Virus record (IMG/VR): IMGVR_UViG_3300048037_000562
Coordinates: 1-29,314 of that record
Origin: a virus
Length of the DNA stretch: 29,314 bases
Reading direction: 5' to 3' (one strand)
In this document: piece by piece, positions 13,586 through 29,314 of the stretch
How positions within the stretch are numbered: position 1 is the first letter of the stretch
Layout of the letters: every line of letters starts with the position of its first letter
Position numbers and translations under genes: made by a program
Notes under the pieces: model-generated
The model's database searches: none
Told to the model about the DNA's origin: nothing
The model's input: the letters and a program-made list of their open reading frames with translations, nothing else

Positions 13586-14563
13586 ATGTATTATTCTGAT
13601 ATAGAAAACCTTCATGTTGAATTAACAAACAGATGTAATGCTGGTTGCCCATCATGTGTTAGAACTGGAGATTTTCCTGGGTTTGTATCTGAAACTATTT
13701 TTAATAGCGGAATTCACGATTTATCGCTAAATGATATGAAAAATATATGTGAACAATTACCAAAACTTAAATGGATCCATATGTGTGGCAATCTTGGTGA
13801 TCCAGCTGTTTCCCCAGAATTTAAAGAAATAGTACATTATCTAAATTCAAAAAATATTTATTGTACTATATCAACAAATGGTGCACCAAGAAAACCAGAA
13901 TATTGGAAAGAAATAGCATTAAAAGGTGTTAGCGTTTCATTTCACATAGATGGTGATGAAGATACGAATCACTTGTATCGTATTGGAACAAACTATTATA
14001 AAATTATTGATAATGCAAAAGCATTTATTAAAGCTGGTGGTCATGCTCGATGGGTTTTTATACCTTTTAAACACAATGAACACGTCATAGAAAAATGTAA
14101 AAATTTAGCTAAACATTTAGGTTTTAAAGAATTTAACGTAAAAAAATCTTATAGAGTGACTAACTTAAGCCCAAAGGCAAAAATAAAAATAGAATTACCT
14201 AAAAATGAAAATTTAATAAATTTTGGAGCTACTAATAATAAAGGAGATAAATGTATTAGTTGTAAAGTAAGTAATAATAATGAAATTTATTTTTCATGTA
14301 ATGGTGAAATTTATCCTTGTTGTTGGTGGGCTGGATATTTTTGGAGTAAAAAATTTTCGAATAAAGAAAATAAATTTTCGTATTTATTAGATTTTGAAAA
14401 TAATTTTAAAAAAAGAGATATCAAAGATATTGTAAATGACTATATTAAAAAAACAGATGTTTATAAATTAGTATGGGATCTTAAAAAATTTAGTGTATGT
14501 AATAAAAAATGTGGTAATGATAAACACAAAGATAGATATGTTGAAAGCAGAAAAAAATTATGA
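13586..14563 (+). CDS. Radical SAM protein with C-terminal SPASM-like cysteines
   Basis: The N-terminus has a CX3CX2C cluster (Cys17, Cys21, Cys24 in TNRCNAGCPSC), which ligates the SAM-cleaving 4Fe-4S cluster. This is followed by MCGNLGDPAVSPEFKEIVHY (66-85), which fills the role of the GGEP motif, and by ISTNGAPRK (95-103) and SFHIDGDEDT (118-127) on the barrel strands. After the barrel, cysteines at 223, 226, 238, 245, 246, 305 and 309 form a SPASM-like region that could hold a second cluster (CISC, CNGEIYPCCW, CNKKC). In characterised families SPASM radical SAM enzymes act on peptides or small molecules, for example in RiPP maturation. The product here is unknown. One base separates it from the methyltransferase-like gene; its 3' end overlaps the PP-loop gene by four bases, and its 5' end shows no strong ribosome site. 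Confidence 0.85.
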   Translation: MYYSDIENLHVELTNRCNAGCPSCVRTGDFPGFVSETIFNSGIHDLSLNDMKNICEQLPKLKWIHMCGNLGDPAVSPEFKEIVHYLNSKNIYCTISTNGAPRKPEYWKEIALKGVSVSFHIDGDEDTNHLYRIGTNYYKIIDNAKAFIKAGGHARWVFIPFKHNEHVIEKCKNLAKHLGFKEFNVKKSYRVTNLSPKAKIKIELPKNENLINFGATNNKGDKCISCKVSNNNEIYFSCNGEIYPCCWWAGYFWSKKFSNKENKFSYLLDFENNFKKRDIKDIVNDYIKKTDVYKLVWDLKKFSVCNKKCGNDKHKDRYVESRKKL

Positions 14564-15303
14564 TAAAATTTGAAGTAGATAACCAATCAATAGAAATTGA
14601 TGTTGAAAAATTACAAAAATATAAAAAAATTGGAATTGCATTTTCTAGTGGAACTGATTCAAGTTTAATATTTTGTTTATTAGCTAAGTATGTACCAAAC
14701 ATAGAAATCATACCATGGTATGGAATAGAATTTCATCAATTACCCGGTTTAGATTTTGTTAAAGACGCACATAAAAAAATAGTTAATAATTACCCTAATG
14801 CTAATATAGCACCAATGCGATATTTTGGTATAGATAAAAAAGATCCTATTTGGATAAAAAAATTTGAAAATTCAAAAAACAATGATTTTCTTGTCAGTAA
14901 AAACATAAAAAATTATATAGTTGATGAAGCACATAATGAATATCTTAGAACTGGCATTACAAATCTTAATGTTTTTGGTACGTTATCAGCACCACCAAAA
15001 TCAGAATGTATTAAATATAATTTTATTAAATATGTCCAACCATATCGTTTTAATCCAAATGGTGATATATGGAGTATAACTAACACAAAAATATGGCAAC
15101 CTCTTAAATTTGTAAATAAAAAATTTGTTGCTGGAATGTTTAAAAAAGAAGGTCTTATGGATTGGTTATATTCCCATTTAAATTCATGTGCAAGTAGAGA
15201 TCCAGTAAAAACTAAAAATTTTACATACCCCTGTAAAACCGATTGTTATCAATGTCATGAAAGATATTGGGGTTTTGGAACATATGATGGATCAACAAAA
15301 TGA
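14560..15303 (+). CDS. QueC/N-type PP-loop ATP pyrophosphatase-like protein
   Basis: The 247-residue protein carries a PP-loop near the N-terminus (FSSGTDSSLIF, residues 28-38; usually SGGxDS), which binds ATP and adenylates a substrate. The C-terminal third has cysteines at 210, 225, 229 and 232 in NSCASRD and PCKTDCYQCHERYWGF. The spacing resembles the zinc site of QueC (CxxCxxC with a following arginine and GF), which converts 7-carboxy-7-deazaguanine to preQ0. The rest of that pathway (FolE, QueD, QueE) is not in the window, so a role in queuosine or 7-deazaguanine DNA modification is not supported; a carboxylate-activating amide, thio or nitrile reaction on another substrate is possible. 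It overlaps the genes before and after by four bases each (ATGA), so it should be co-produced with the two radical SAM proteins. Confidence 0.7.
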   Translation: MIKFEVDNQSIEIDVEKLQKYKKIGIAFSSGTDSSLIFCLLAKYVPNIEIIPWYGIEFHQLPGLDFVKDAHKKIVNNYPNANIAPMRYFGIDKKDPIWIKKFENSKNNDFLVSKNIKNYIVDEAHNEYLRTGITNLNVFGTLSAPPKSECIKYNFIKYVQPYRFNPNGDIWSITNTKIWQPLKFVNKKFVAGMFKKEGLMDWLYSHLNSCASRDPVKTKNFTYPCKTDCYQCHERYWGFGTYDGSTK

Positions 15304-16541
15304 AAAATTTTCCAAAAAATTTCTGTCCCCAACCATTTACATATATTTATCCTAATCATCATGGTGCATGGAAACCTTGTTGTAAATGTCAGAATTATCC
15401 TCAGAAAAAAATATCATTTGATGAATGGTGGTATGAAGATAAAGAGTTAAAAGATTTAAGAAATACTTTATTGTCTGATACTCCTTATGATGAATGGAAT
15501 GAAAATTTACAAAATGTTTGTGAACGATGTTTTGGTCCAGAAAGCAGAGGTGTAAAGTCTTATAGACAACATTCAGTAGATTCATGGTCACACCCAAGTG
15601 TAAAAGATAATTTATTAGATATGATAAATTCTTTTAAAGAAACAGGAAAGTTAGTAGCAAATCAACGAACATTTATAGTTAAAGTAAGAGGTTTTGGTAA
15701 TGAATGTAACTTAAAATGTTATATGTGTGTTCCTCATAATTCAACAGCTAGAAATACTGAATTACTTAAAGCAAATGAAGATAGTGTTAAGATTTTCTAC
15801 CCTAAAGGTCATCAAAGATTAATTAAAAATAAAACTATACCATTAGACAATGAGTATGAAAAACAACAAATGTATGATGTTATAGAAAAAATGAGTCCAT
15901 ATATAGCTCAGTTTAATTTTTCTGGTGGAGAGCCAGTAATGATAAAAGAATACTATGAGTTAATGGATAAAATTATTGAAACAGGACAAAATCAAAACGT
16001 CCGAATTCATATGAATAGCAATCTTACTAGACTTAATTTGGGTAATAAACACTTAGAAGAATACATTCCAAAATTTAAAATGTTTTTTATACAAGCGTCA
16101 ATTGATGATATATATGAAAGAGATGAATGGTCTCGTTATCCCTCAAAATTTGAAAAAGTTATGGAGAATTACAAGTATCTTCAAAATAATAAAAAAATAC
16201 AAATTATTGTGCACCCAACTTGGTCTCTACTAAATGTGGCAAATGCTGAAAATATATTAAATTTTTTTCTAGCTAATAGTATGAGAATAAATGATAATAT
16301 AAATTTTGTATCTAATCCATCAGTTTTACATATAAAAAATTATCCACACAAAGACTTTTTTATAGAAAAATATAAAAATTCTAAATTTAAAATGGTGAGA
16401 GAATTATCTCTTGAATTGCAAGCAGAATTTAATCAAGCAGAGTTTTTAAAAGCAATTAACTATATTAAAGATTTAGATAGAATTAGAAAAACAAAAAGTT
16501 GGGAAGTATATCCTGAATTAAGTGAATTTTTAAAACCATGA
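15300..16541 (+). CDS. Radical SAM protein with N-terminal cysteine clusters (twitch/SPASM-like)
   Basis: The 413-residue protein reverses the usual order: an auxiliary cysteine-rich region comes first (Cys9; Cys27, Cys28, Cys30 in KPCCKCQ; Cys74 and Cys77 in NVCERCF), and the radical SAM core follows. The core cluster is CX3CX2C at Cys136, Cys140, Cys143 (ECNLKCYMC), the SAM-binding motif is FSGGEPVMI (207-215), and RIHMNSNLTR and FIQASIDD are the later barrel strands. The 'FCPQPFTYIYPNHHGAWKPC' start resembles the beginning of a SPASM domain, so the protein may hold one or more extra Fe-S clusters. Such proteins are seen in marine phage accessory regions; the reaction is unknown. ATGA overlaps of four bases link it to the PP-loop gene and the glycosyltransferase gene. 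Confidence 0.8.
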   Translation: MKNFPKNFCPQPFTYIYPNHHGAWKPCCKCQNYPQKKISFDEWWYEDKELKDLRNTLLSDTPYDEWNENLQNVCERCFGPESRGVKSYRQHSVDSWSHPSVKDNLLDMINSFKETGKLVANQRTFIVKVRGFGNECNLKCYMCVPHNSTARNTELLKANEDSVKIFYPKGHQRLIKNKTIPLDNEYEKQQMYDVIEKMSPYIAQFNFSGGEPVMIKEYYELMDKIIETGQNQNVRIHMNSNLTRLNLGNKHLEEYIPKFKMFFIQASIDDIYERDEWSRYPSKFEKVMENYKYLQNNKKIQIIVHPTWSLLNVANAENILNFFLANSMRINDNINFVSNPSVLHIKNYPHKDFFIEKYKNSKFKMVRELSLELQAEFNQAEFLKAINYIKDLDRIRKTKSWEVYPELSEFLKP

Positions 16542-17278
16542 TTAATATACTAACACTAAAAGTTGGGACAAAATATTCACATGAATATGTAAACAAATTA
16601 TTTTTTAATTTAAATAAAAATAGTAATACTAAGTTTAATTTTTACTGTTATACTGAAGATGCATCAAAATTAGCATCAGGTATAAAAGTAATACCACTTG
16701 AAAATCCTGATAAATTTCAACTACAATGGCATAAATTAAAATTACATAAAAATGATTTTGCAGGTATATCGCAAGGTGAAAAATGTTTACTATTAGATAT
16801 TGATTGGATTGTAATTGATGATGTAGATGAAATATTAACTTATAATTTACCACACAATCATCTTGGTTGTTTTGAAAGATGGTGGTCTAATCTTAGACAT
16901 TTCTGTAAGTTAAATGGTGGATTTCAAATGTTTTATATGGGTGAAACAAATTATCTTTGGGAAAGATTTAACAAAAACCCAGAATACTGGCAAAGATATT
17001 ATGTGGAAAATGGATTTGCAGAAGGGCCAATAAATGGTGAACAAAACTTTATTGATGAACATACAAAAAATAAACATTGGTTACCAATGGAATGGTTCGC
17101 AAAATATCATAGTGAAGATTGGATTAAAATAAATCGTAACTGGCAAAGAGATGTTAATCCAGAAGAGCCATATTATATGGGAGGTACTTTTGCTGAAACT
17201 ATTAAGATGGTACATTTTTCAAACTCTGAAAATTTAATTCATAATAGTAATGAACATTGGATAAAAGATTATTGGTAA
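16538..17278 (+). CDS. Glycosyltransferase-like protein, paralogue of the minus-strand gene at 12226
   Basis: The 246-residue product has TLKVGTKYSHEYVNKLFFNL, FNFYCYTEDASKL (33-45) and a DxD motif in CLLLDIDWIVIDDVDE (Asp87-Ile-Asp89), which places it with GT-A fold transferases. The C-terminal half (FKLNGGFQMFYMG-like segment, NGEQNFIDEH, KMVHFSN with a late His) fits the usual acceptor region with a C-terminal metal or phosphate-binding His. The N-terminal half lines up with the 12226-12972 protein along its length, but the DxD is Asp-Ile-Asp instead of Asp-His-Asp, so the two have diverged. It is the last gene of the coupled run, sharing four bases with the second radical SAM gene, and is followed by a 141-base intergenic region. 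Confidence 0.65.
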   Translation: MINILTLKVGTKYSHEYVNKLFFNLNKNSNTKFNFYCYTEDASKLASGIKVIPLENPDKFQLQWHKLKLHKNDFAGISQGEKCLLLDIDWIVIDDVDEILTYNLPHNHLGCFERWWSNLRHFCKLNGGFQMFYMGETNYLWERFNKNPEYWQRYYVENGFAEGPINGEQNFIDEHTKNKHWLPMEWFAKYHSEDWIKINRNWQRDVNPEEPYYMGGTFAETIKMVHFSNSENLIHNSNEHWIKDYW

Positions 17279-17791: not shown

Positions 17792-20221
17792 ATGGCGACA
17801 ATCGTAAATACAATCACTCAATCCACTCCGAGCTCATCACCAGCTGAGGGTCAAGAAAAGAAAAATTTCGATTCGTCAAGAATAGACTTTTTATCAAGCT
17901 CATTTGCAAACATTGATTCCGGAAGATATACAAATCTTCATGCTGATTCAGCGCATGTTAATACATTAACAGCTAATAGTATTAGCTTTACAGGATTAAA
18001 TGTCGACTCTGGTAATATTACCACGTTATCAACAACGACTTTAAATCCTGCTACTATCAATGCTACAACAATTAACGGTGATTCTGGTAACTATACAAAC
18101 CTTACGGCAGTTAATTTAACTGCTACTAATTTAAATATTAGTAATGGTACTACACTTTCTTTTGCAGGTATCTTTACAAATTTAACGGCTGATTCAGCCA
18201 ATATTACAAACATCACATCTAATACTTTAAAAAGAACTCCTCCTGCTGGTGTTACACCTGGCAAATACGGTCAAATGGGAGGTAATAGTAAATTATCTAA
18301 AGCACCAATTATAACAGTTGATTCTTCTGGATTTATTAATATCACAGATCAAGGTGCTGTTGCTGGTGTTGCAAGTACTGCTTTTGATAGTGCTAGTTTT
18401 AACTTTAGTATTAATACTACTGATAGTGGAAGTACGCCAGTAGTTAAAATGGCTCACACAAGAAAGCCTGGTTTAGCGGCAAGTGCAAGTTTTTACGGAA
18501 CAGCATCAAAAGTTCCAACAATAAAAATAAATCAATACGGTCATGTTGATAGTATTGCTTTAGTTGACATTGCAGGAATTAGTGGTACAAATTGGGATTC
18601 TGCTAATTCAACATTTCAAATTACTCAAACAGATGGTACTACAGTAGGTGAAGTTATTAATGGTTGGGGTGACAACCAAAAAATATATTTCGGTGCTGGA
18701 CAAGATTTAGAAATATATCATGATACGTCAAACAGTGTTATTAGAGATGGTGGAACTGGTAGTTTAATTATTGCTGGTGATACAATTCAAATAATGAATG
18801 CAGCACAAACAGAAACAATGGGTTTGTTTCAACAAGATGCTGCTACTTCAATACATTATAATAATGATCCTAAATTATTAACAACCGCAACAGGTGTTCA
18901 AGTAAGTGGTACCGCAGTAACAACTGCTGGGATTACTGCAGGTAGTCATATCTTACCGGCAACTGATGGCGACGTTGATCTTGGATCTTCTACAAAGAAA
19001 TTTAGAGATTTGCATTTAAGCGGTTCAACTCTTAAAATTGGAACTATACAATTTAAAGACAGCGCATCCGGATTAAGAGTAGAAAAGATTGCTGGCAATG
19101 AAGTAGTTCCAATTGTTTTTAGAGAACTCGAAGTTGATTCTGCCACAGTATCAGGTAATATAACTGCCGGTACTTTTACAGGTGACGGTAATGCTTTAAC
19201 TAATTTTAATGCAGCTCAAATTAGAACACATATGTCTGCAGGAACCGGTGTTGGATTTGCAAGTGGCGTTATATCGATTGGCCAAGCAGTAGGTACTGGC
19301 AATGATGTACAATTTAAAGATCTTTTATTAACTGGAGACTTAACAGTTCAAGGTACTACAACAACTATTAGTAGTGCAACAATGGATGTTACAGATAAAA
19401 ATATCACTATAGCAAAAGGTGCTGCTGATGCTTCAGCCGCAGACGGTGGTGGTATAAACATTGAAGGTGCTGGTGCTAACTTTACTTACACAAGTAGTAA
19501 TGATAGATGGAATATGAATAAAGCCCTTGTGGTTTCAATGGTACACGGCAACGTAACTGGTACTGTAACTGATATTAGTAATCATAGTACTGATACTCTT
19601 TCAGAAGGTTCTACAAATCTATATTTTACACAAGGTAGAGCAAGACAATCTATTAGCGGCGACAAAGGTTTAACTTATAACTCTGGCACCGGAATAATGG
19701 ATGTTGATTCATCAAATATTATAGAATTTACAAGAGCTTCTTTAGGAGGAGATAAAGGTTTAACTTATAATACTACAACCGGTGTCATGGATGTTGATTC
19801 TGCTAACGTCAAAGAAATGTTTACTGGTGCAAATAACATAGTTTATAATAATTCCACTGGACAAATTCGTACAAATATAACAAGTGCAGATCTATCAACA
19901 GATAGTTCTTATTTAACTGCCACATCATCTAATCAACTAATATCATCGATATCAGCATTAACTCACAGAAGCGTAAAGTTTTTAGTACAAGTTCGTGTAG
20001 ATGCTGGTGGTGAAAAAGTTCAAACTTCGGAAATAAATGTTATACATCAAGGTGGTAATGCGTTTATGACTGAATACGGTAGAGTAGGTAACACTGACGA
20101 TAATTTGGCTACATATGATGCAGATATAAATTCAAACAATTTAAGATTGTTGGTGACTCCAGCAAATGCAAATACTGAATTTAAAGTATTTAAAACGGCA
20201 GTCAAAATTAATACAACTTAA
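17792..20221 (+). CDS. Tail fibre/baseplate protein with gp9-like C-terminus (809 aa)
   Basis: The N-terminal 180 residues are a run of beta-strand repeats with DSGNYTNL, ADSAHVNTL and ADSANITNI units. Around residue 296-345 comes NQKIYFGAGQDLEIYHDTSN with SVIRDGGTGSLIIAGDTIQI, then PATDGDVDLGSSTKKFRDLH and a 'LTVQGTTTTISSATMDVTDKNITIAKG' region, all common in fibre proteins of marine T4-like phages. Two to three DKGLTYN repeats follow (622-695). The last 90 residues (VKFLVQVRVDAGGEKVQTSE, INVIHQGGNAFMTEYGRVGN, and a final FKVFKTAVKI) match the C-terminal domain of T4 gp9 (KLLVTCQSVDGRKIKTAEIN, SEYAVMRVGNETEE), the connector of long tail fibres to the baseplate. A GGAG ribosome site stands upstream. 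It is probably a virion connector or fibre. Confidence 0.65.
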   Translation: MATIVNTITQSTPSSSPAEGQEKKNFDSSRIDFLSSSFANIDSGRYTNLHADSAHVNTLTANSISFTGLNVDSGNITTLSTTTLNPATINATTINGDSGNYTNLTAVNLTATNLNISNGTTLSFAGIFTNLTADSANITNITSNTLKRTPPAGVTPGKYGQMGGNSKLSKAPIITVDSSGFINITDQGAVAGVASTAFDSASFNFSINTTDSGSTPVVKMAHTRKPGLAASASFYGTASKVPTIKINQYGHVDSIALVDIAGISGTNWDSANSTFQITQTDGTTVGEVINGWGDNQKIYFGAGQDLEIYHDTSNSVIRDGGTGSLIIAGDTIQIMNAAQTETMGLFQQDAATSIHYNNDPKLLTTATGVQVSGTAVTTAGITAGSHILPATDGDVDLGSSTKKFRDLHLSGSTLKIGTIQFKDSASGLRVEKIAGNEVVPIVFRELEVDSATVSGNITAGTFTGDGNALTNFNAAQIRTHMSAGTGVGFASGVISIGQAVGTGNDVQFKDLLLTGDLTVQGTTTTISSATMDVTDKNITIAKGAADASAADGGGINIEGAGANFTYTSSNDRWNMNKALVVSMVHGNVTGTVTDISNHSTDTLSEGSTNLYFTQGRARQSISGDKGLTYNSGTGIMDVDSSNIIEFTRASLGGDKGLTYNTTTGVMDVDSANVKEMFTGANNIVYNNSTGQIRTNITSADLSTDSSYLTATSSNQLISSISALTHRSVKFLVQVRVDAGGEKVQTSEINVIHQGGNAFMTEYGRVGNTDDNLATYDADINSNNLRLLVTPANANTEFKVFKTAVKINTT
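19658..19880 (+). repeat. DKGLTYN-type repeats in the 809-residue protein
   Basis: Two clear units (GDKGLTYNSGTGIMDVDSSN and GDKGLTYNTTTGVMDVDSAN) and a diverged third (GANNIVYNNSTGQIRTNI) in a row, period about 26-27 residues, each one probably a beta-turn unit. The same unit occurs in the following gene, so the module has spread between neighbours. Confidence 0.75.
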
Positions 20222-20239
20222 TAACGGCAGTTAAAATTA
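20194..20239 (+). repeat. Direct repeat around the stop of the gp9-like gene
   Basis: Two copies of aacggcagtcaaaatta, 17 bases with one change (t for c), begin at 20194 and 20223, a period of 29 bases. The first copy encodes the last residues TAVKIN of the 809-residue protein. The second lies after the stop, in another frame. It looks like a small duplication or recombination scar at the gene border. Confidence 0.7.
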
Positions 20240-20252
20240 CAGGATAAATCAT

Positions 20253-23200
20253 ATGCCTATTAGAAAAATAACGTTACAAAGAGCGGCTTCTGATAAACCG
20301 CAGCTGGGTGCAGATTATATTGATTCAAGCTTTGCATTAGACTCATCGGAAGCAATTCAGCTACTAGGATTTAATCCAACACTTGGTAATAGTTTTGTCG
20401 ATTCTGCAGAAGCTAAAAAACTTATTGAAGGAGATAAAGGTTTAACTTATAATACTGGTACCGGTGTTATGAGTATTGATTCTGCAAACATCAAAGAAAT
20501 GTTTGAAGGTGACAAAGGTTTAACTTATAATAATTCTACCGGTGTTTTCAATTTAGATTCAGCAAACGTTATTAGTTTTACTCGAGAATCGATATCTGGT
20601 GATAAAGGTTTAGTTTATAACAATGCTACTGGTGTATTTAATCTTGATTCAGCAAACGTTAAATCAATCTTTGGAACAGATAACAAAGGTTTAGTTTATA
20701 GTAATGGTACATTTAATGTCGACTCAGCAAATATAAAAAGTTTTACGATTGCTGATGCGATTAATGATGGTACTACTACTATTGCGCCTTCACAAAATGC
20801 GGTGTTTGATGCACTAGCTCTTAAAGCAAATACGGCTGCAATACCAACTCTTGGTGGAAATTTTGTTGATTCGGCTGAAGCAAGAAAACTAATTTCAGGT
20901 GATAAAGGATTAACGTATAATAACGCAACCGGTGTTATGGATCTTGACTCTGCTAATGTTACAGAAGTTGCTCGAGCAAGTATTATATCACATAACAAAG
21001 GAATAACATATAATAATACTAGTGGCGTTATTCAAGTTGACTCTTCAAATATTAACATTATAGCAGATGCAAGAATAACTACAGCTTTAGCTGGCAATAT
21101 TATCATTGGTGGTACCTTAACAGTTAACGGTACTACAACCACTGTTAATTCAAATACTGTTAACATTGGTGATAATATAATTGTATTGAATTCTGATGAA
21201 ACTGGAGCTGCTTCACAAGACGCCGGAATTGAAGTAGAAAGAGGATCTGATACTAATGTTCAACTTAAATATGATGAAAGTTTAAATAGATGGCGTTTTA
21301 CTAATGATGGTACAACTTTTCAAGATCTCGGTGCAGGTACCGGTGATATTACAGGCGTCGATATTACTGCAGGTACTGGATTAACTGGTACAGTAAGTAC
21401 ATCTTCAGGTGATCATACACAAACAATTAATGTTGATGTTGGTACTGCTGCAAATAAAATAGTTCAGTTAGATGGTACTGCAAAATTACCAGCAGTTGAT
21501 GGGTCAGCCTTAACTAATTTACCAGCTGCATCAACGGCTTTTATTTCTTTAACAGATACTCCTGCAAACTTTACCGGTGCTGCAACTAAAATAGTAAGAG
21601 TTAATGCCGCCGGAAATGCATTAGAATATTTATCTGATACTACATTAGTTGATGCTGATTTTTCTTCTGCTGGTTTAATGAAAACAGATGGTGCTGGTAA
21701 TTATTCATTAGTTACTGATGCTAGCGCTAATTGGAATACCGCTTTTGGTTGGGGTAACCATGCGAGTGCTGGATATTTAACATCGCAAACATCTCATGCT
21801 GATGTTCTAGTTGATGGTGATTTTTCATCAGCAGGTATTATGACAACAAACGGTTCTGGCACCTATACAATAATTACTGATGCTAGTTCAAATTGGAATA
21901 CTGCGTTTGGTTGGGGTAATCACGCCAGCGCTGGCTATCTTACTGGCACTTTACCAACTTTAGGTGGAAGTTTTGTAGACTCGGCTGAAGCTGCTAAAAT
22001 ACCAGAAACAGAATTTAGTGTTACAACAGCAAATGGCGGTGTGTACAAATTTACTGGTGATGGTTTTCCTACACAATCTGGTGATAATCCACCAATCTTT
22101 TTTACTCGTGGTAAAAAATATGTTATAAACAATTCTTCTCACGGATCTCATCCACTGTATATTAAAACAATTGCAGGTGCTGGAACTGGAAATCAATATT
22201 CATCTGGAGTAACTGGACAAGGAACTGTTAAGGTTACTTTTGAAGTTCCAATGGACGCACCTAAAGTATTATACTATCAATGTTCTGCTCACACAGCGAT
22301 GTACGGTCCGATTTATATATTAAATGATACATTTGGTCCTGATTCTTCTGGAGTTAATACATTAGCAGATGCTAGAATTGCTGCTGCTTCAATTAACGCT
22401 TTATCAGACGTAAATACTGCAGGTATATCAAGCGGCCAAGTTTTAAAATATAACGGATCACAATTTGTAGCTGGCAACGATTCTAGCACAATTGGTATTC
22501 AATTCGCAGATTCAAATGGAACATTAGCAACATCCGGCACACTAGTAACTTTTACTGGAACTGGTGTTACTGTTTCTGGATCAGGCGCAAGTAAGACCGT
22601 TAATATTACAGGTGGAGGTGGCGGAGGAGGCGGATCTCTTAATAACATTGTTGAGGATACCACACCACAATTAGGCGGAAATTTAGATGTAAATGGACAA
22701 AAAATTGTTAGTGTTTCAGGCGGTGATATCGATATTGAACCGAATGGAACTGGAGATGTTTTACTTGGTAATTTTAAATTTGATGCCGATCAAAGCGTTG
22801 GTTCTGGTCAAGATAATCATGTTTTAACTTATGATAATTCAACCGGAAAAATAAGTTTAGAAGCGTCTGCTGGCGGTGGTGGAAGTGCCATTACTATACA
22901 AGAAGAAGGTTCATCATTATCAACAGCAGCATCTACAATTAATTTTGTTGGAGCAGGAGTAACTGCTTCTGGAAGTGGGACAACAAAAACAATTACAGTT
23001 GGTAGTAATATAATAGCTACCGGTAATACAGCAGAAACATTCACTGGTAATGGATCACTAACTGCTTTTACTTTAACAAATACATTTACTACTACTAGTG
23101 CAGTTGTATTTTATAATGGTCAACATTTAACACCGACATCTGATTATGCGATAAGTGGCCAAACATTAACATTTACATTTACGCCTGTTAATGGTTCAGA

Positions 23201-23840
23201 AATTGTTGTTAGAAATATAAATGCTGGTAGAACAAAAATAGATACGTTTACAGCAAATGGATCGACAACCCTGTTTACAACAACAAATGTTTATTCTACT
23301 ATTTCAGAAATTATGGTATTTGTAAATGGTAGTTTATTAGTTCCAAGTACTGACTATACATTTGTTGCTCCAAATAAAGTAACATTTACTTTTACTCCAA
23401 CTAATCTTTCAGAAATTGCTATAAGAGGTTCTGGTGAAAATGCAGTTCTTGCTAATAGATTTACGTATGTTGCGACTAATAATCAAACCGCATTTACTGG
23501 CGCAGATGCAAATGGTAATACTTTATCATTTATAGCAGACAATATTGATGTATATTTAAATGGTTCTAAATTAAGTAAACAACAAAGCGATTTTTCAGTA
23601 AGTGGTGGTAATACGGTAACTTTGAATGCTGGTGCAGCCGTTAGTGACATATTAGAAATAGTTGTATTGGATCCTTATGAAGTAGCTAATGTTTTACAAA
23701 TAAATAATAATTTAAGTGATTTAAGTAATGTAACAACTGCAAGAACTAATTTGGGAGTAATAAGTTTAGCTACTTTAAAATCTGAAGTTGCGGCTTCAGC
23801 AGATTTTGCAGCGTTTAAAGCAAGAATAGCAGCACTATAA
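20253..23840 (+). CDS. Modular tail fibre with cupredoxin-like domain (1195 aa)
   Basis: In order: an N-terminal region with repeated DSxEA motifs (SSEAIQLL, DSAEAKKLI); four DKGLTYN units (60-164) and two more (216-270); LTVNGTTTTVNSNTVNIGDN (290-309); a duplicated block ending in FGWGNHASAGYLT (466-564); a cupredoxin-like domain (about 590-690); a poly-Gly linker of eight residues near 792; NIVEDTTPQLGGNLDVNGQK; three beta repeats (about 928-1141); and the C-terminal end LSDLSNVTTARTNLGV and ASADFAAFKARIAAL, typical of phage fibre tips. The cupredoxin-like region has GVYKFTGDGFPTQSG, FFTRGKKYVINNSSHGSHPL, VTFEVPMDAPKVLYYQCSAH, with His633, Cys677, His680 and Met683 in copper-ligand positions. 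It should be a virion adhesin or fibre. Copper binding is inferred. AGGA lies upstream of the ATG. Confidence 0.7.
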   Translation: MPIRKITLQRAASDKPQLGADYIDSSFALDSSEAIQLLGFNPTLGNSFVDSAEAKKLIEGDKGLTYNTGTGVMSIDSANIKEMFEGDKGLTYNNSTGVFNLDSANVISFTRESISGDKGLVYNNATGVFNLDSANVKSIFGTDNKGLVYSNGTFNVDSANIKSFTIADAINDGTTTIAPSQNAVFDALALKANTAAIPTLGGNFVDSAEARKLISGDKGLTYNNATGVMDLDSANVTEVARASIISHNKGITYNNTSGVIQVDSSNINIIADARITTALAGNIIIGGTLTVNGTTTTVNSNTVNIGDNIIVLNSDETGAASQDAGIEVERGSDTNVQLKYDESLNRWRFTNDGTTFQDLGAGTGDITGVDITAGTGLTGTVSTSSGDHTQTINVDVGTAANKIVQLDGTAKLPAVDGSALTNLPAASTAFISLTDTPANFTGAATKIVRVNAAGNALEYLSDTTLVDADFSSAGLMKTDGAGNYSLVTDASANWNTAFGWGNHASAGYLTSQTSHADVLVDGDFSSAGIMTTNGSGTYTIITDASSNWNTAFGWGNHASAGYLTGTLPTLGGSFVDSAEAAKIPETEFSVTTANGGVYKFTGDGFPTQSGDNPPIFFTRGKKYVINNSSHGSHPLYIKTIAGAGTGNQYSSGVTGQGTVKVTFEVPMDAPKVLYYQCSAHTAMYGPIYILNDTFGPDSSGVNTLADARIAAASINALSDVNTAGISSGQVLKYNGSQFVAGNDSSTIGIQFADSNGTLATSGTLVTFTGTGVTVSGSGASKTVNITGGGGGGGGSLNNIVEDTTPQLGGNLDVNGQKIVSVSGGDIDIEPNGTGDVLLGNFKFDADQSVGSGQDNHVLTYDNSTGKISLEASAGGGGSAITIQEEGSSLSTAASTINFVGAGVTASGSGTTKTITVGSNIIATGNTAETFTGNGSLTAFTLTNTFTTTSAVVFYNGQHLTPTSDYAISGQTLTFTFTPVNGSEIVVRNINAGRTKIDTFTANGSTTLFTTTNVYSTISEIMVFVNGSLLVPSTDYTFVAPNKVTFTFTPTNLSEIAIRGSGENAVLANRFTYVATNNQTAFTGADANGNTLSFIADNIDVYLNGSKLSKQQSDFSVSGGNTVTLNAGAAVSDILEIVVLDPYEVANVLQINNNLSDLSNVTTARTNLGVISLATLKSEVAASADFAAFKARIAAL
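20430..20745 (+). repeat. Four DKGLTYN-type repeats
   Basis: Four units of 25-28 codons (GDKGLTYNTGTGVMSIDSAN, GDKGLTYNNSTGVFNLDSAN, GDKGLVYNNATGVFNLDSAN, and a diverged NKGLVYSNGTFNVDSAN) at residues 60-164. They match at the DNA level closely enough to be a recent duplication, and match units of the gene before. Confidence 0.8.
20898..21062 (+). repeat. Two further DKGLTYN-type repeats
   Basis: The units GDKGLTYNNATGVMDLDSAN and NKGITYNNTSGVIQVDSSN are separated from the first group of four by about 150 bases with a 'PTLGGNFVDSAEARKLI' stretch that is itself a copy of the pre-repeat segment (PTLGNSFVDSAEAKKLI). So a larger block was duplicated. Confidence 0.75.
21648..21944 (+). repeat. 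Duplicated block, period 162 bases (FGWGNHASAGYLT units)
   Basis: Two copies starting at 21648 and 21810 encode VDADFSSAGLMKTDGAGNYS and VDGDFSSAGIMTTNGSGTYT, each continuing to NWNTAFGWGNHASAGYLT. They are of near-identical length, so it is a tandem duplication within the fibre gene, immediately before the cupredoxin-like domain. Confidence 0.8.
22020..22325 (+). other. Cupredoxin-like domain inside the 1195-residue fibre gene
   Basis: Residues about 590-690 contain GVYKFTGDGF, a strand with FFTRGKKYVINNSSHGSHPL, then an edge with VPMDAPKVLYYQCSAHTAMY. The Cys-x2-His-x2-Met set (Cys677, His680, Met683) and His633 on the earlier strand are in the places of the four ligands of type 1 copper proteins (plastocyanin has Cys-x2-His-x4-Met). 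The spacing is two residues shorter in the loop. This kind of domain occurs in marine phage and bacterial surface proteins; metal binding is inferred from residues only. Confidence 0.6.
23034..23676 (+). repeat. Three tandem fibre domains of about 70 residues
   Basis: The units start ETFTGNGSLTAFTLTNTFTT, DTFTANGSTTLFTTTNVYST and NRFTYVATNNQTAFTGADAN. Each goes on with a 'VFxNGxxL.PxxDYxxxG' strand (FYNGQHLTPTSDYAISGQ, FVNGSLLVPSTDYTFVAP, YLNGSKLSKQQSDFSVSG) and a hydrophobic end. Together they form a stack of beta domains before the fibre tip. Confidence 0.75.
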
Positions 23841-23859
23841 TGAAAAAAGGACTAATTAT

Positions 23860-26800
23860 ATGGGTATAGCAAAGAATAGAGCTGAAAGAATAGGATCGAC
23901 TGTAGTTCAAATTGGTTCTACTAAACTTGTACCTAATGCTGATAACGATATTGAAGTTAAAGATACTAGTAATAATAGAAAAAAAGTTATTGCTTCTGAA
24001 TTAAGAGTTGGTACAGGTAATGATATTGTTATTATTAAAAGAGATTCAAGTACTGGTAAAGCAAAATTTGAAACATCTTCTGATGGTGGTGGAAGTACTG
24101 CTGCACAAAATTTAGGTGGAAGTTCAGTATATACAAATCCTTCAGATTTACCTATTACCGGAAATACGGCCGGAGATATGGCTTTTGTAACATCGACTAA
24201 TAATCTGATGATCCATAATGGTTCAGGTTGGTATAAAGTCGCTACAGTAACAAATGCTACACCAACCATATCATCGGCTGGAGATGCATCTTATTCATTT
24301 TTAACTGATGGAACTGCTGTTTCAATAGAAGTTACGGCCAGTGATCCTGAAGGTGTTGCATTACAATATAAGTATACTGTATCAAGTGGATCTGTTGGAA
24401 GTACAGCAACGATAACTTCAAGCTCAACATCTGGTGGTACTTATAGTGCATTAAACGCAAATACCCTTACTACTAATAAATATTTTAAAGTTACACCTTC
24501 TACAAATGAAGCGCATGCTGGAACTTTTTCTCTTACTTTTTCGGCTTATGATGGCATTAATACCGGATCCTCAACCGCATCATCTTTTACATTAGGATTT
24601 GATGTACCAGGATCTCTCATATTTGATGGAACTAGCGATAAGATAACAGTAGAAGATAGTGATGATTGGCATTTTGGTACTGGAGATTTTACAATAGAGG
24701 CATGGATTTATTCTAACTCTTTTGCTAATGGATTCAATGCTATTGTAGGTCAATGGCCTAGTAATGGTGCTAATGCAAATAATTCTTTTGTTTGGGAAAC
24801 CGTTGGTACTGAATTAGATTTTTATACTTTACATGGTGGAACAACCATAACTAGTCATCTAGGAGGAATTACTTTAAGTTTATATACTTGGTATCATGTT
24901 GTTGTACAAAGATCTGGTGGAACTGTAAAACAATACATAAACGGTGTTGAAGATTTTTCGGTTAGTAATAGTAATAATTTTAATAATGTTTCACAACCTC
25001 TAACGATTGGTGGTGGAGTGACAAGTTTAACTGGAGGGACTTGGAATGGATATATTTCAAACTTGAGACTTGTAAAAGGATCTGCTGTTTACACTCCAGG
25101 CAGTACTGGTAATAGTACTTATTTTGACGGAACCGGAGATTACCTTAGTATACCTAAAAGTGCAGACTTAGAGTTTGGCAGTGGAGATTTTACAATAGAA
25201 ATGTTTGCTAAATATACAGGCAGTACTTTCCCAAGCTATACTTGTCTTTACTCTCAAAGTTATCCAATTCAATTTTACTTGGTTAGTGGAAAACCATATG
25301 TCTTTTTTAGTGATGCTGGAGATAGTCCAAGTTACTATGCACCATTAGATGCAAACTCAGCTATTACAGGTTATAATGGCACTTCAGTTGTAAAAGATAC
25401 ATTTTATCATTATGCAATCACTAGATCTGGAAATACTTTTCGACTCTTTATTAACGGCTATCAGGCAGCAACTAGTACATCAGGTACCGCTTTAGGAACT
25501 CCATCTTCTATTGGTGTTTCTATAGGTGATTATGCTAGTTCAGGACTATATGAATGGACAGGAAATATAAGTAATGTTAGGGTTATAAAAGGTACTGCTC
25601 TTTATACTAGTAACTTTACTGCACCAACTGCTCCACTGACAGATGTAACAAACACTAAACTATTAACTTGTCAAAATAGTAGTGGTTCTATTACGGATGC
25701 GAGTACAAGTAATCATACAATAACTGCTCATGCTAATGCAGCTGCGAATGCAGCTGGTCCATTTGGAGCATTTACTGTACCAACTGACGCACTTACAGCA
25801 GTTTCAAATACTAAATTATTACTATCTACTAATAATGTAATAAATGTTACAAATGGATCAATATTATTTGATACAAATACTGAAAATTTATTAATAGCAG
25901 ATCATGCTGATTTTGCATTCGGATCTGGAGATTGGACTATAGATTTTTGGTTTTACTTTTTAGCAGCACCAGGCAGCAACAACTGGTTTTGTAATGTAGG
26001 TGTAGATAATTCGGATTCTATTCAAATCTATTATCTACACAGTAGTAATTCATTATCATTTTGGGATAATGGCGGCGGCGGAACTGGTGGTATGGTTTTA
26101 ACTAATTTTGGGTCAGAAGTTGGTCAATGGCATCATATAAGATTTTGTAGACACGGAAATAACCATTACATATTTCTTAACGGTAATTGTACAGATACTT
26201 CTGGTAATATAATTACGACAGGCCAAACTTGGACAAGAAGTTATACTCACGCACCTGCAACAAATAAGCTTCGTATTGCTGGATATGGTAGTGGTAGTTA
26301 TGGATGGGATACTCCAGGAATGCTTTTAAGTGATTTTAGAATAGTTAAAGGTACAGCGGTAAGTCAATCTGCTGCTAAATTTGCTTTACCATCATCACCA
26401 TCAACTGCTGTTAGCGGTACAGTTTTATTGTGCGCACAAGGTGACAGTGGTCTTTTAACTGACAATAGCGGAACAAGTAAAAATCTTACCATAGGTGAAG
26501 GAGCCCCGACAGTAGATGCAAGAAAAGTCCAATTACCAGTTTCTGACATCAGCGGTAATAATGTTGGTCTAACCTTCGGGGGTGATGTAGCATTTTCTTA
26601 TGTTACACCATTTGTTGATAATAAAGGTGGTTCAGTATTTTTAGATGGTAATAGTGATTATATACAATTTCCAGATAGTACAGACCATGAATTGGGTAAT
26701 GTCAATTTTACAATAGAAGCATGGGTATACCAACTTAATTCTGCTGCTTCTGACTCTCACCATATTATTAATAAATGGAGTAATAGTGGAACAAATAAAG

Positions 26801-28017
26801 AATATATATTAAGAATAGCTGAAAGTAGTGGCAACAAACTACAATTCCTTTACACAAACAACGGTAGTACTAATATTATTATAACAGGTAATGATGTAAT
26901 ACTAAACAATACTTGGACTCATGTAGCTGTACAAGCTACTAGTCTTACTGTAACATTGTACGTTAATGGTATTGCTCAATATTCTACTGGAGCACAAGGT
27001 GCTATTTACGCTGGAACAGAAGGAGTAGGTATTGGTGCTCAAACAAATGCTGGTAGCCCTAGTCAATACTTTGATGGTTATATTTCAAATGCAAGAATTG
27101 TTAAAGGATCTAATGTTTATACACCAAGTACTGGTTCAGGAGGATCAACTTTATTTGATGCTAGCAGTGAAGATTTATTAATAGAGCATGCTGATATGTC
27201 GCTTGGAACTTCAGATTGGACTATAGATCTTTGGTTTAAATTATCGGGTAATACTTCAGGTGGTACTTACTTGTTATGGTTTGGCCCTAGTAATGGTACT
27301 GATAATACCGAATCTATTCATGTATATTTTCCTTCTCACAGACATTTAGTTTTTTACGACTTTGCTGGTGGTGGTGGATATGGTGTTATGCCTATACCTA
27401 CAAATAATATATGGTATCATGTAAGATATTGTCGGCATGGACTTAACCATTACCAGTTTCTTAATGGTAATTGCTATGAAGATTGGGACCGAGGTGGGAG
27501 TGGATCTAGTACTAGTGGTGATATTATTACGACTGGTGCATCATGGATTGCCACTAGCAATTATGATCATGCTCCTGCATCTAATGACTCTCTCCGTATT
27601 GGAGGTGGTTATTCAGGTGGATATGGTTTCGGAAATGGTGTAAGAATAAGTAATGTTAGAATAATAAAAGGTACAGCGTTAAATACATCACCTGCTCCAT
27701 TTAGTGTACCCCAATCACCTTTAACAGCAGTAGCAAATACAAAATTGTTAACGTGTCAAAACTCTAGTGGTGATCCTACAGTTGACAATAGCGGAACAAG
27801 TAAAACTATTAGTATTGCTAATGGTTCCCCGACAGTAGATGCAAATAATCCATTTATTGGTCATTTTGTTGTTCCGACATCAAAATTAACTAATGTAACA
27901 AATACTAAACTTTTAACTGCAAATGATAGTAATATTATTAATGATGCCAGTACAGGCAATCATACAGCTACAAAATATCATTCAACGGTTGCAACAAAAT
28001 TTCATCCCTTTTCATAG
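23860..28017 (+). CDS. LamG-domain fibre/adhesin protein (1385 aa, five LamG-like domains)
   Basis: The first 250 residues form an attachment region (MGIAKNRAERIGSTVVQIGS, TNPSDLPITGNTAGDMAFVT, LMIHNGSGWYKVATVTNATP and a cadherin/Ig-like VEVTASDPEGVALQYKYTVS). Then come five concanavalin A-like (LamG) domains at about 251-414, 420-592, 666-847, 923-1092 and 1094-1287. The first, second and fourth have the 'FxGxxDxxxxPxSxDxxFGxGDFTIExWxY' opening and 'WYHVVVQRSGGTVKQYINGV'; the third and fifth have 'SGDWTIDFWFY' and 'RFCRHGNNHYIFLNGNC'. Linkers between them carry 'NTKLLTCQNSSG'. Such domains bind glycans or proteins, and in phages they make host-contacting fibres. The N-terminal 250 residues are repeated in the next gene. 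AAGGA precedes the ATG. Function as a receptor-binding protein is inferred. Confidence 0.75.
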   Translation: MGIAKNRAERIGSTVVQIGSTKLVPNADNDIEVKDTSNNRKKVIASELRVGTGNDIVIIKRDSSTGKAKFETSSDGGGSTAAQNLGGSSVYTNPSDLPITGNTAGDMAFVTSTNNLMIHNGSGWYKVATVTNATPTISSAGDASYSFLTDGTAVSIEVTASDPEGVALQYKYTVSSGSVGSTATITSSSTSGGTYSALNANTLTTNKYFKVTPSTNEAHAGTFSLTFSAYDGINTGSSTASSFTLGFDVPGSLIFDGTSDKITVEDSDDWHFGTGDFTIEAWIYSNSFANGFNAIVGQWPSNGANANNSFVWETVGTELDFYTLHGGTTITSHLGGITLSLYTWYHVVVQRSGGTVKQYINGVEDFSVSNSNNFNNVSQPLTIGGGVTSLTGGTWNGYISNLRLVKGSAVYTPGSTGNSTYFDGTGDYLSIPKSADLEFGSGDFTIEMFAKYTGSTFPSYTCLYSQSYPIQFYLVSGKPYVFFSDAGDSPSYYAPLDANSAITGYNGTSVVKDTFYHYAITRSGNTFRLFINGYQAATSTSGTALGTPSSIGVSIGDYASSGLYEWTGNISNVRVIKGTALYTSNFTAPTAPLTDVTNTKLLTCQNSSGSITDASTSNHTITAHANAAANAAGPFGAFTVPTDALTAVSNTKLLLSTNNVINVTNGSILFDTNTENLLIADHADFAFGSGDWTIDFWFYFLAAPGSNNWFCNVGVDNSDSIQIYYLHSSNSLSFWDNGGGGTGGMVLTNFGSEVGQWHHIRFCRHGNNHYIFLNGNCTDTSGNIITTGQTWTRSYTHAPATNKLRIAGYGSGSYGWDTPGMLLSDFRIVKGTAVSQSAAKFALPSSPSTAVSGTVLLCAQGDSGLLTDNSGTSKNLTIGEGAPTVDARKVQLPVSDISGNNVGLTFGGDVAFSYVTPFVDNKGGSVFLDGNSDYIQFPDSTDHELGNVNFTIEAWVYQLNSAASDSHHIINKWSNSGTNKEYILRIAESSGNKLQFLYTNNGSTNIIITGNDVILNNTWTHVAVQATSLTVTLYVNGIAQYSTGAQGAIYAGTEGVGIGAQTNAGSPSQYFDGYISNARIVKGSNVYTPSTGSGGSTLFDASSEDLLIEHADMSLGTSDWTIDLWFKLSGNTSGGTYLLWFGPSNGTDNTESIHVYFPSHRHLVFYDFAGGGGYGVMPIPTNNIWYHVRYCRHGLNHYQFLNGNCYEDWDRGGSGSSTSGDIITTGASWIATSNYDHAPASNDSLRIGGGYSGGYGFGNGVRISNVRIIKGTALNTSPAPFSVPQSPLTAVANTKLLTCQNSSGDPTVDNSGTSKTISIANGSPTVDANNPFIGHFVVPTSKLTNVTNTKLLTANDSNIINDASTGNHTATKYHSTVATKFHPFS

Positions 28018-28033
28018 AAAGGTACTTATATAA

Positions 28034-29314
28034 ATGAGTAAGGCAAGAGATAGAGCAGATAGAAAAGGAGTTGATCCAGTAAATATTGGTAATGCTCGTT
28101 TAGCTTTAGATTCAGCTGGTGGCAGCGATCTTAAAGTTACTGCACAAGATGGATCGACACTTAAAAAAGTTTTTGCTGAACAAATACAACTTGGAACCGG
28201 TGCTAATAGAGTTATAATTAAAAAAGCTGCAGCTACTAATAAATTTGAATTTCAAACTACTGATGGTTCATCAACAGATGCTGCAAGTATAGGTACTGGT
28301 GTAGTAACAAATCCATCAGATTTACCATTATCTGGAAATAGTGCAGGAGATACAAGGTTTGTAACATCTAATAATAATTTAATGATCCACAACGGTTCAG
28401 GTTGGTATAAAGTAGCAACAGTAACAAATTCATCTCCAACTATTTCGTCAGCAGGAAATGCATCATATGGTTTCGCAACAGATGGTACTCCAGTAAGTAT
28501 TGAAATTACGGCATCTGATCCTGAAGGCGTGGCACTTCAATACAAGTATACCGTATCAAGTGGATCAATTGGTAGTACTGCTGCTGTTACTTCAAGTGCA
28601 ACTTCTGGTGGTACATATAGTGCGCTAGCAGTTAATACTCTTACAAGTAATAAATATTTTAAAGTTACACCAAGTACTAACACTGCTCACGCTGGAACTT
28701 TTAGTTTAACATTCTCAGCATCCGATGGTGTAAATGTTGCAAATTCATCAGCTTCATCTTTTAGTTTAACATTTGCAACTTATGGTTCTGTTAATGTTGA
28801 TGGTACTGGCGATTGGGTAACTGGTACAGTAGCTGCAGCCGGAACGAATGATTTTACTTTAGAAGCTTGGGCAAATTGGGATACTATATCACATAGTGGG
28901 GTTGTTTCCATACATACTTCTCTTAATGCAAGTGGTGTTAATGGGTTTGCTTTTGCTAGAACAAATGGTACAGGATATCAAGTATATTATGGTAATACTT
29001 ATACCACTAGTACAATTGGTTCTGATCCAATAGCTGGCACTTGGTATCATTTAGCTTTAGTTAGAATTAGTAATGTACTAAAATTATATGTAAATGGCGC
29101 GGAAAGTTTTTCAGTATCAGATTCGACAAATTACACACAAACTATTTTGCAAATTGGTGGTTATTATAGTGCCTCTTATTTAATGGATGGTAAAATTTCA
29201 GACGTAAGATATGTTGTTGGAACCGGAGTTTATACCGGGGATTTTACTCCACCAAGTGGTGCATTAACTAAAACTGGTGGAACTTATCCTTCTAGTACTA
29301 ATGTCAATACATCT
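28034..29314 (+). CDS. Second LamG-domain fibre protein, paralogue of the previous (3' end outside window)
   Basis: An ATG at 28034 follows AAAGG by about 9 bases and the frame stays open to the window edge (427 codons). The product begins MSKARDRADRKGVDPVNIGN, and from residue about 90 to 250 it is very close to the preceding protein: TNPSDLPLSGNSAGDTRFVT, LMIHNGSGWYKVATVTNSSP, EITASDPEGVALQYKYTVSS, SNKYFKVTPSTNTAHAGTFS. It then enters a LamG-like domain (NVDGTGDWVTG, NDFTLEAWANW, WYHLALVRISNVLKLYVNGA, DVRYVVGTGVYTGDFTPPSG), the first of probably several. It is the tandem duplicate of the 1385-residue gene, with a more diverged N-terminal tip. Both are probably alternative or paired fibres. 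Confidence 0.75.
   Translation, partial: MSKARDRADRKGVDPVNIGNARLALDSAGGSDLKVTAQDGSTLKKVFAEQIQLGTGANRVIIKKAAATNKFEFQTTDGSSTDAASIGTGVVTNPSDLPLSGNSAGDTRFVTSNNNLMIHNGSGWYKVATVTNSSPTISSAGNASYGFATDGTPVSIEITASDPEGVALQYKYTVSSGSIGSTAAVTSSATSGGTYSALAVNTLTSNKYFKVTPSTNTAHAGTFSLTFSASDGVNVANSSASSFSLTFATYGSVNVDGTGDWVTGTVAAAGTNDFTLEAWANWDTISHSGVVSIHTSLNASGVNGFAFARTNGTGYQVYYGNTYTTSTIGSDPIAGTWYHLALVRISNVLKLYVNGAESFSVSDSTNYTQTILQIGGYYSASYLMDGKISDVRYVVGTGVYTGDFTPPSGALTKTGGTYPSSTNVNTS

What the first reader, a model, noticed from the sequence alone, without database searches (positions are those of the whole stretch)
23860..29314. Tandem LamG-domain fibre genes with exchangeable modules
Two adjacent genes share the region of residues about 90-250 almost unchanged, including DNA stretches such as ggttcaggttggtataaag, and diverge beyond. 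The first carries five LamG-like domains in two classes (first/second/fourth versus third/fifth), and DNA segments between modules (for example a run with gacaatagcggaacaagtaa near 26461 and again near 27784) are repeated. This is a host-range diversification layout.
Basis: partly seen in the sequence, partly recalled or inferred. Interest (0 to 1): 0.55.

Follow-up and report, generated by a model that had tools for sequence, protein, structure and literature searches.

The report
Phage tail-lectin genes built by module shuffling
A marine virus of bacteria carries neighbouring genes for probable tail proteins that share a fixed front end and carry strings of lectin-like (sugar-binding type) domains, and comparison with relatives shows those domains being swapped between genes and viruses like interchangeable heads, probably to change which hosts are recognised.

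Summary
Gene A (23860-28017, 1385 aa) has an N-terminal segment, an Ig-like domain and five LamG domains. Gene B (28034 to the contig end) starts the same way. The shared part is 81% identical in protein but 67-79% in DNA: conserved, not freshly duplicated. LamG 3/5 and 1/4 pair up; LamG 2 fits neither pair.

A profile scan brought in 34 loci on 32 contigs. With the window, 9 of 33 contigs carry 2-4 copies in tandem, so the window probably holds the start of a longer array. The N-terminal segments define gene 'slots'. A LamG module's closest relative lies in the same slot for 31 of 101 modules, against 28 of 32 for Ig. Close relatives that match at 90-97% in flanks, N and Ig carry different LamG stretches, with breaks near domain edges. 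The window's own LamG 3 is 88% identical in DNA to one in another lineage, whose N and Ig are only about 60% alike.

Best reading: receptor-binding tail proteins diversified by recombination that swaps lectin modules between phages. The exchange is well supported; receptor binding and host range are inferred. New variant of a known kind.

The parts
23860..28017 (+). Gene A: multi-LamG probable tail protein (slot A), 1385 aa, N - Ig - LamG1 - LamG2 - linker - LamG3 - linker - LamG4 - LamG5 - tail linker
   Evidence: ORF; Pfam PF13385 five stretches; domain HMMs; slot by N tree, 99/99 support
23860..24120 (+). Gene A N-terminal segment (aa 1-87), slot-specific, probable attachment part
   Evidence: 92% aa identical to the slot-A gene of L006/L030, DNA 91%; attachment role inferred from position only
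24121..24600 (+). Gene A conserved block aa 88-247 with Ig-like domain
   Evidence: 81% aa identical to gene B; the N+Ig model of gene B has pLDDT 82.0, its residues 130-247 match Ig/cadherin-like folds (best Z 9.5, rmsd 2.5, 92 aligned)
24607..25113 (+). LamG 1 of gene A
   Evidence: HMM; nearest relative L008 LamG 1, 74% aa, in a different gene lineage
25108..25635 (+). LamG 2 of gene A
   Evidence: HMM; nearest relative L028_5039 LamG 1, 51% aa
25636..25851 (+). Linker after LamG 2 with repeated 'NTKLLTCQNSSG..D.S...HTIT' type motif
25852..26400 (+). LamG 3 of gene A
   Evidence: HMM; 89% aa and 93% DNA (gaps left out) identical to LamG 3 of L051 while N is 59% and Ig 60% in DNA
25845..26528 (+). 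Module-sized block (LamG 3 plus about half of the linker) shared with L051/L012 at 88% DNA identity: exchanged module
26401..26625 (+). Linker after LamG 3, holds the exact repeats at 26460-26482 and 26504-26521
26626..27135 (+). LamG 4 of gene A
   Evidence: HMM; nearest relative is LamG 1 of L050, 71% aa, i.e. moved position
27139..27720 (+). LamG 5 of gene A
   Evidence: HMM; nearest relative is LamG 3 of L050, 69% aa
27721..28014 (+). C-terminal tail linker, holds the second copies of the repeats (27783-27805, 27827-27844)
28034..29314 (+). Gene B (slot B), cut by the contig end: N - Ig - LamG1 ...
   Evidence: ORF open at 3' end; slot by N tree, 100/99 support
28034..28294 (+). Gene B N-terminal segment (aa 1-87)
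28295..28774 (+). Gene B conserved block aa 88-247 with Ig-like domain
28781..29263 (+). LamG 1 of gene B
   Evidence: Pfam PF13385; model residues 250-408 match concanavalin-type folds, best Z 16.2, rmsd 2.4, 155 aligned

Best explanation
These are receptor-binding tail proteins of a T4-like marine phage, encoded as a tandem array of paralogous genes. Each gene slot has its own N-terminal segment (probably the part that docks to the tail), then an Ig-like spacer, then a string of LamG (concanavalin-type) lectin modules and short repeated linkers. Shown: in related phages LamG modules have been swapped between slots, positions and phage lineages, with breaks at the N/Ig edge, the Ig/LamG edge and the linkers, while N segments stay with their slot; Ig domains have crossed between slots A and B. 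Inferred: the swaps happen by homologous recombination between co-infecting phages, using the conserved Ig and linker DNA as matching arms, and are kept because new lectin combinations bind new surface sugars and so change host recognition.
For: High-identity DNA ends at domain edges between close relatives: L039/L040 97% and 97% flanks, 90.5% N+Ig, LamG part replaced; L043/L049 97% flank, 92% N+Ig, then one internal stretch replaced (1.1 kb versus 0.4 kb), then 95%; L032/L030 95% and 93% up to aa 244 and 247 in two slots. Of 21 breakpoints 2 lie inside a LamG core against 9.4 expected at random; mean distance to a domain edge or gene end 15.8 aa against 37.3. LamG modules: nearest relative in another contig is in the same slot for 31 of 101, Ig 28 of 32, N 32 of 32 (slots were named from the N tree, so the N figure is circular). 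Examples: L028 slot B versus L035 slot C2 LamG 3 96% DNA with N 69% and Ig 68%; window LamG 3 versus L051 93% DNA (gaps left out; 88% by BLAST) with N 59% and Ig 60%. AU tests: Ig rejects slot A (p 0.0014) and slot B (1.5e-4); LamG 1 rejects slots A, B and C2 (p below 1e-40); N rejects the Ig grouping (2.3e-5). Backbone more diverged than the fibre: baseplate wedge 28% and DUF4815 protein 22-36% to the L031 phage, gene B N+Ig 62-72% to its three array copies and 51% to its fourth copy.
Against: No host, receptor, virion structure or binding data. Tail location rests on neighbours and PHROG labels, not on proteomics. Contigs are metagenomic fragments; some of the swapped copies (L032, L039, L049 among others) were seen in one assembly only, so a chimeric assembly is not excluded case by case. 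Many contigs are closely related, so the counts are not independent. LamG keeps some slot memory: 31 of 101 against 14.5 of 106 for random partners, and 18 of 35 among pairs of 80% identity or more; in L031/L033/L035 slot A stays alike at 84-87% through LamG 1 and 2 and changes only from about residue 710. Near-identical contigs show no swap at all, so exchange was not caught in the act.
Confidence: 0.77

Rival explanations
1. The LamG parts simply evolve faster by point change and small indels under positive selection; no exchange is needed.
For: LamG 1 of some same-slot genes shows no clear kinship at all (long branches in the LamG 1 tree), as fast divergence would give.
Against: Modules up to 96% identical in DNA sit in genes whose N and Ig are 60-70% alike; identity returns to 95% downstream of a replaced stretch; positions shift (window LamG 4 resembles LamG 1 of L050).
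Confidence: 0.06
2. The phage shuffles its own array: modules are copied between tandem slots within one genome (gene conversion), as a built-in repertoire.
For: Slot A and slot B Ig domains of the L031/L033/L035 lineage (with L028 slot B, L037 and L038) form one clade with 100/100 support and AU rejects slot-wise Ig inheritance; the window's own A and B Ig fall in one weakly supported group (81/79).
Against: Among the 106 LamG modules only 2 pairs within one contig reach 55% identity, both in L030 slots A and B (60% and 62%); the window's own LamG 3 and 5 reach 51%. Recent copying inside a genome is thus not seen, and the best donors are in other phages.
Confidence: 0.12
3. A dedicated diversity machine, a diversity-generating retroelement or an invertible segment, varies these genes.
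For: Tail adhesins are classical targets of both (recalled).
Against: RVT_1 in 0 of 33 and Resolvase in 0 of 33 records including the window, with controls ringing in 3 and 10 of 14 genomes; inverted repeats of 25 nt or more in 20000-29314 are seven weak pairs (26-31 nt, 70-78%); variation is by whole modules.
Confidence: 0.03
4. Assembly artefact: the tandem array and swaps are chimeras made by the assembler from a mixed population.
For: Metagenome contigs; the window ends inside gene B and L035 ends inside an Ig domain, as repeats and strain mixtures cause.
Against: Longest exact repeat between slots of one contig is 19-44 nt (24 in the window); contig pairs with different dataset numbers agree at 99.6-100% through these genes (L033/L034, L030 with L029/L036, L040/L041, L043/L045).
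Confidence: 0.04

Closest known systems
Domain shuffling in phage receptor-binding proteins (PMC10684548, passages read)
   Same: Conserved N-terminal part with exchanged downstream domains, also across distant phages; recent mosaicism; N-terminal Ig-like domain among the over-represented ones
   Different: Here three layers with different mobility (slot-bound N, slot-crossing Ig, mobile LamG), often several LamG per protein, and 2-4 such genes in tandem in 9 of 33 contigs
Host recognition cluster of pelagimyophages (PMC7029224, passages read) and metaviromic islands (PMC3909814, passages read)
   Same: Hypervariable host-recognition region of marine phages; concanavalin domains (first paper) and lectin-like domains (second) named; non-tail genes inside the cluster (first)
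   Different: Those passages describe region- or gene-level variability; module-level swaps and slots are not described in the passages I read
Broad-host-range Schizotequatroviruses (PMC12028318, passages read)
   Same: Several tail fibres per phage and recombination hotspots at receptor-binding loci; divergence goes with recombination, not with dN/dS
   Different: Cultured Vibrio phages with seven candidate fibres; no tandem LamG array in the passages I read
T4-type tail-fibre adhesin evolution: domain duplication and exchange at conserved motifs (recalled, not looked up)
   Same: Short conserved stretches serve as recombination arms around variable adhesin modules
   Different: Different protein family and fold

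Membership tests
Laminin_G_3 (PF13385), concanavalin-like lectin domains | Profile match above the curated cut-off | tested here: met
   217.8 and 60.4 bits against a cut-off of 27.6; five and one stretches
Laminin_G_3 (PF13385), concanavalin-like lectin domains | Jelly-roll fold of the concanavalin/pentraxin/LamG type | tested here: met
   Predicted LamG of gene B, best Z 16.2 with rmsd 2.4 over 155 aligned, model residues 250-408; the whole model is of modest confidence, pLDDT 67.9
Laminin_G_3 (PF13385), concanavalin-like lectin domains | Sugar binding | not testable with these tools
   Needs protein; the fold alone shows no function
Domain-shuffled phage receptor-binding protein | Constant N-terminal part with exchanged C-terminal modules in close relatives | tested here: met
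Domain-shuffled phage receptor-binding protein | Protein sits on the tail and binds the host | not testable with these tools
   Only neighbour genes and PHROG labels (baseplate wedge, tail fibre connector, virion structural protein) support it
T4-like myophage (Kyanoviridae-like) | Baseplate wedge homologue | tested here: met
   phrog_438 E 8.1e-64; best row of 522 records in the phage collection is Phage C48C1 (Kyanoviridae) at 34.5% identity, then Pelagibacter phage Mosig at 28.5%
T4-like myophage (Kyanoviridae-like) | Membership in a named genus or family | not tested
   No phylogeny was made and capsid or terminase genes were not looked for
Diversity-generating retroelement target | Reverse transcriptase nearby and adenine-directed variation | tested here: inconclusive
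   RVT_1 in 0 of 33 records, most of them fragments; adenine-directed change was not tested, but the variation seen is by whole modules
Invertible tail-fibre segment | Serine invertase and inverted repeats flanking the variable part | tested here: inconclusive
   Resolvase family in 0 of 33 records, most of them fragments; no strong inverted repeat of 25 nt or more in 20000-29314

The most novel reading that the evidence does not exclude
A shared pool of lectin modules serves a whole group of marine phages whose backbones are far apart: each phage shows several multi-lectin fibres at once through slot-specific anchors, and modules are exchanged like for like by position (same neighbour context in 35 of 61 cross-slot pairs against 14.3 expected), so host recognition works as a combinatorial code that can be read from sequence.
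Probability: 0.27. Interest if true: 0.68.

Novelty: new variant of a known kind. Interest (0 to 1): 0.46.

Why it matters
Which part of a phage decides its host is mostly unknown in the ocean, where many hosts are hard to grow (general knowledge). Here the parts are already sorted by nature: anchor, spacer and lectin modules have different histories and can be told apart from sequence alone. Each swapped module in otherwise near-identical phages is a natural experiment on host recognition. No record of the phage collection matches the N+Ig part of gene B at E 1e-3, so the family may be new to the laboratory.

Tried and rejected
Recent duplication of gene A into gene B: rejected by third-position divergence. 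Retroelement and invertase: not found, with fragments as the limit. Relatives of N+Ig among 50,697 phage records: none at E 1e-3. Whole gene A gave 192 records, all below 60% identity; in the 20 rows shown the match begins at residue 232 or later, i.e. essentially the LamG part. Host by bacterial genomes: 121 pattern matches, none a relative, so the host stays unknown. Fold of the N segment (1-87): not settled; rows of the fold search cover 130-247, and the viral and PDB lists gave full-length alignments with large rmsd. Copying inside a genome as the main source of LamG diversity: not supported. Asking whether near-identical contigs differ mostly in LamG: 36 differences in four comparisons (9, 13, 13, 1), of which 10 fall in LamG domains (8 of these in the one upstream frame L030_2), 6 in linkers, 20 outside these genes and none in N or Ig; too few to conclude. 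Papers: searches listed none whose title or abstract start tells of this arrangement; one search held 2,618 papers and showed 10, so this is a statement about the listings only.

Rows dropped before counts: the architecture scan left out L014-L022 (brought in by gene A's LamG part; no N or Ig match) and loci repeated under a newer number, and read only the + strand of each oriented locus. The module tables use 25 sources, the window included, as a nearly non-redundant set (42 genes, 112 modules of 120 aa or more); slot statistics use 106 of these 112, leaving out L036, L054, L055 and L059. The trees of N and Ig have 34 rows and that of LamG 1 has 30. The 21 breakpoints were picked by hand from the blocks, some from related pairs. 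In one search the fragment L032_1 was counted as its own slot; searches count it as slot A.
Full report
What is there. The window is a whole virus record of 29,314 bases from the tail region of a T4-like phage: a baseplate wedge homologue at 2056-3498 (phrog_438), a DUF4815 protein at 3511-8970, two other fibre-type proteins (17792-20221, 20253-23840), and then genes A (23860-28017) and B (28034 to the end, cut). The best wedge matches in the phage collection are Phage C48C1 (Kyanoviridae, 34.5%) and Pelagibacter phage Mosig (28.5%), so the phage is far from the records there.

Anatomy. Gene A reads N segment (1-87), a conserved block with an Ig-like domain (88-247), LamG 1 and 2, a linker, LamG 3, a linker, LamG 4 and 5, and a tail linker. 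Gene B has the same start and one LamG before the contig ends. The linkers carry a repeated motif of the type NTKLLTCQNSSG..D.S...HTIT (75 linkers and tails of 40 aa or more in the set). The LamG of gene B is predicted as a concanavalin-type jelly roll (Z 16.2, rmsd 2.4, 155 aligned); residues 130-247 as an Ig/cadherin-like sandwich (Z 9.5, rmsd 2.5, 92 aligned).

The shared front is old. In the A/B comparison protein identity is 70-90% in the windows from residue 88 to 237, DNA 67-79%, and third positions agree at 47-60%. So the block is held by selection and is not a fresh copy.

Relatives. Two single-protein scans and one profile scan of the viral collection brought 5, 15 and 34 loci. Counting N+Ig matches per record, 8 records (G001-G005, G012-G014) hold three or four and the window two, so 9 of 33 records have tandem copies. 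One match in G001 is a partial copy at the contig start, and the fourth copy in G003 lies elsewhere, about 46 kb away. The other records hold one gene each; in G010, G011, G028 and G032 one gene is split into two matches, and G030 has a weak second match (residues 88-150, E 2.7e-6) that may be part of another copy. By population the nine are seven, since L029/L030 and L033/L034 are near-identical pairs. Among 31 genes complete at the 3' end, the number of LamG is 0 in 2, 1 in 5, 2 in 2, 3 in 6, 4 in 8 and 5 in 8.

Slots. The tree of N segments gives groups: slot A (8 rows, 99/99), slot B (7 rows, 100/99), C1 (2 rows, 100/99), D (3 rows, 97/96) and C2 (3 rows, 85/87 only). The order along the genome is A-C1-B-D in L030, A-C2-B in L031, L033 and L035, and A-B in the window. 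The array content therefore changes too.

Three layers of mobility. The nearest relative in another contig lies in the same slot for 32 of 32 N segments (circular, as N names the slots), for 28 of 32 Ig blocks, and for 31 of 101 LamG modules; a random partner would give 14.5 of 106, so LamG keeps some slot memory, and among LamG pairs of 80% or more it is 18 of 35. AU tests: the Ig data reject slot A and slot B as clades (p 0.0014 and 1.5e-4), the N data reject the Ig grouping (2.3e-5), the LamG 1 data reject slots A, B and C2 (p below 1e-40) and the pair L043/L049 (9e-4). The groups were named from the tree or blocks of another segment; with related rows the p-values are rough.

Direct swaps. 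Between close relatives DNA identity is high, stops, and returns. L039 and L040: 97% upstream, 90.5% to residue 255, then different LamG, then 97% from about two codons before the stop. L043 and L049: 97% upstream, 92% to residue 280, a stretch replaced, then 95% from the linker after LamG 2 of L043. L032 and L030: 95% up to residue 244 in slot C1 and 93% up to residue 247 in slot B, with the downstream parts different; a later part of the C1 gene of L004 (the same contig as L032) instead resembles the slot-A gene of L006 (the same contig as L030) at 79%. L050 and L051: 95% up to residue 344, 35 residues into LamG 1. In L031, L033 and L035, slot A stays alike at 84-87% through LamG 1 and 2 and changes from about residue 710. 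Of 21 breakpoints, 2 lie in a LamG core against 9.4 expected (hand-picked list). The window itself takes part: the block 25845-26528, LamG 3 with about half of the next linker, is 88% identical in DNA to L051, while the genes' N and Ig are 59% and 60% alike. LamG 4 and 5 resemble LamG 1 and 3 of L050, so gene A looks like a gene extended by a second module set (inference).

Like for like. Of 61 cross-slot nearest pairs at 50% identity or more, 35 keep the same neighbour context and 36 the same ordinal position, against 14.3 and 14.6 in shuffles. Mutual pairs are counted twice and relatives are included, so the exact p means little. The excess suits homologous recombination guided by flanking Ig and linker DNA.

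Not within one genome. Only two module pairs inside one contig reach 55% identity, of the 106 modules compared. The nearest LamG relatives are in other phages. For the Ig block, exchange between slots A and B is supported: Ig of slot A and slot B in the L031/L033/L035 lineage are 81-84% alike in DNA, their N 67-71%.

Backbone contrast. The L031 phage matches the window's wedge at 28% over 395 residues (plus a 30-residue piece at 50%) and the DUF4815 protein at 22-36% in pieces, while its three array copies match gene B's N+Ig at 62-72% and its fourth copy at 51%. The wedge search matched 1 of 32 records and the DUF4815 search 2 of 9, the others being fragments or too far. The fibre genes have therefore probably moved between distant phages, or the N+Ig part evolves unusually slowly; the first is more likely given the module data.

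How it works, shown and inferred. Shown: shared front, LamG strings, array, module exchange at domain edges. Inferred: tail attachment by N, sugar binding by LamG, recombination between co-infecting phages, change of host recognition. A diversity-generating retroelement or an invertase was looked for and not found in 33 records, most of which are fragments.

What is known. [quoted passage not shown] passages read). The tandem, slot-ordered LamG array with three levels of mobility was not described in those passages, nor seen in the listings. I rate it a new variant of a known kind.

Noticed in passing
10514-17278: A low-GC stretch (24-28% in the kilobases 11001-17000, against 31-38% elsewhere) between tail genes holds two radical SAM proteins (13586-14563, 15300-16541) and several ORFs without Pfam match at E 0.01, two of which (12226-12972 minus, 16538-17278) are 28-29% alike; looks like an inserted modification or surface-sugar cassette.
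   Followed up: partly
17792-20221 and 20253-23840: Two further fibre-type proteins share repeats of the type GDKGLTYN..TGV...DSANV with each other; a protein with partial similarity to the second follows the array downstream in L003, L004 and L006, whereas in the window the second stands upstream of gene A.
   Followed up: no
9461-10489: A 342-aa protein with no Pfam match at E 0.1 or PHROG match at E 0.01 carries a tyrosine-rich repeat run near its end (FTGNYTGSYAGTYT and the like).
   Followed up: no
L030:2-3196: Upstream of slot A another open frame with four LamG runs off the locus, about 113 bases short of the contig end, so that array may hold a fifth gene.
   Followed up: no
L042:9977-12832 (L031's 145-kb contig, near 38.8 kb): A fourth N+Ig+LamG gene lies far from the three-gene array on the same contig and belongs to another N group, shared with the single-copy contigs of L039, L040, L043 and L049.
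   Followed up: partly
G030 (contig of L057), 4609-4800 minus: A weak partial second match to the N+Ig profile (residues 88-150, E 2.7e-6) upstream of the main copy near the contig end.
   Followed up: no
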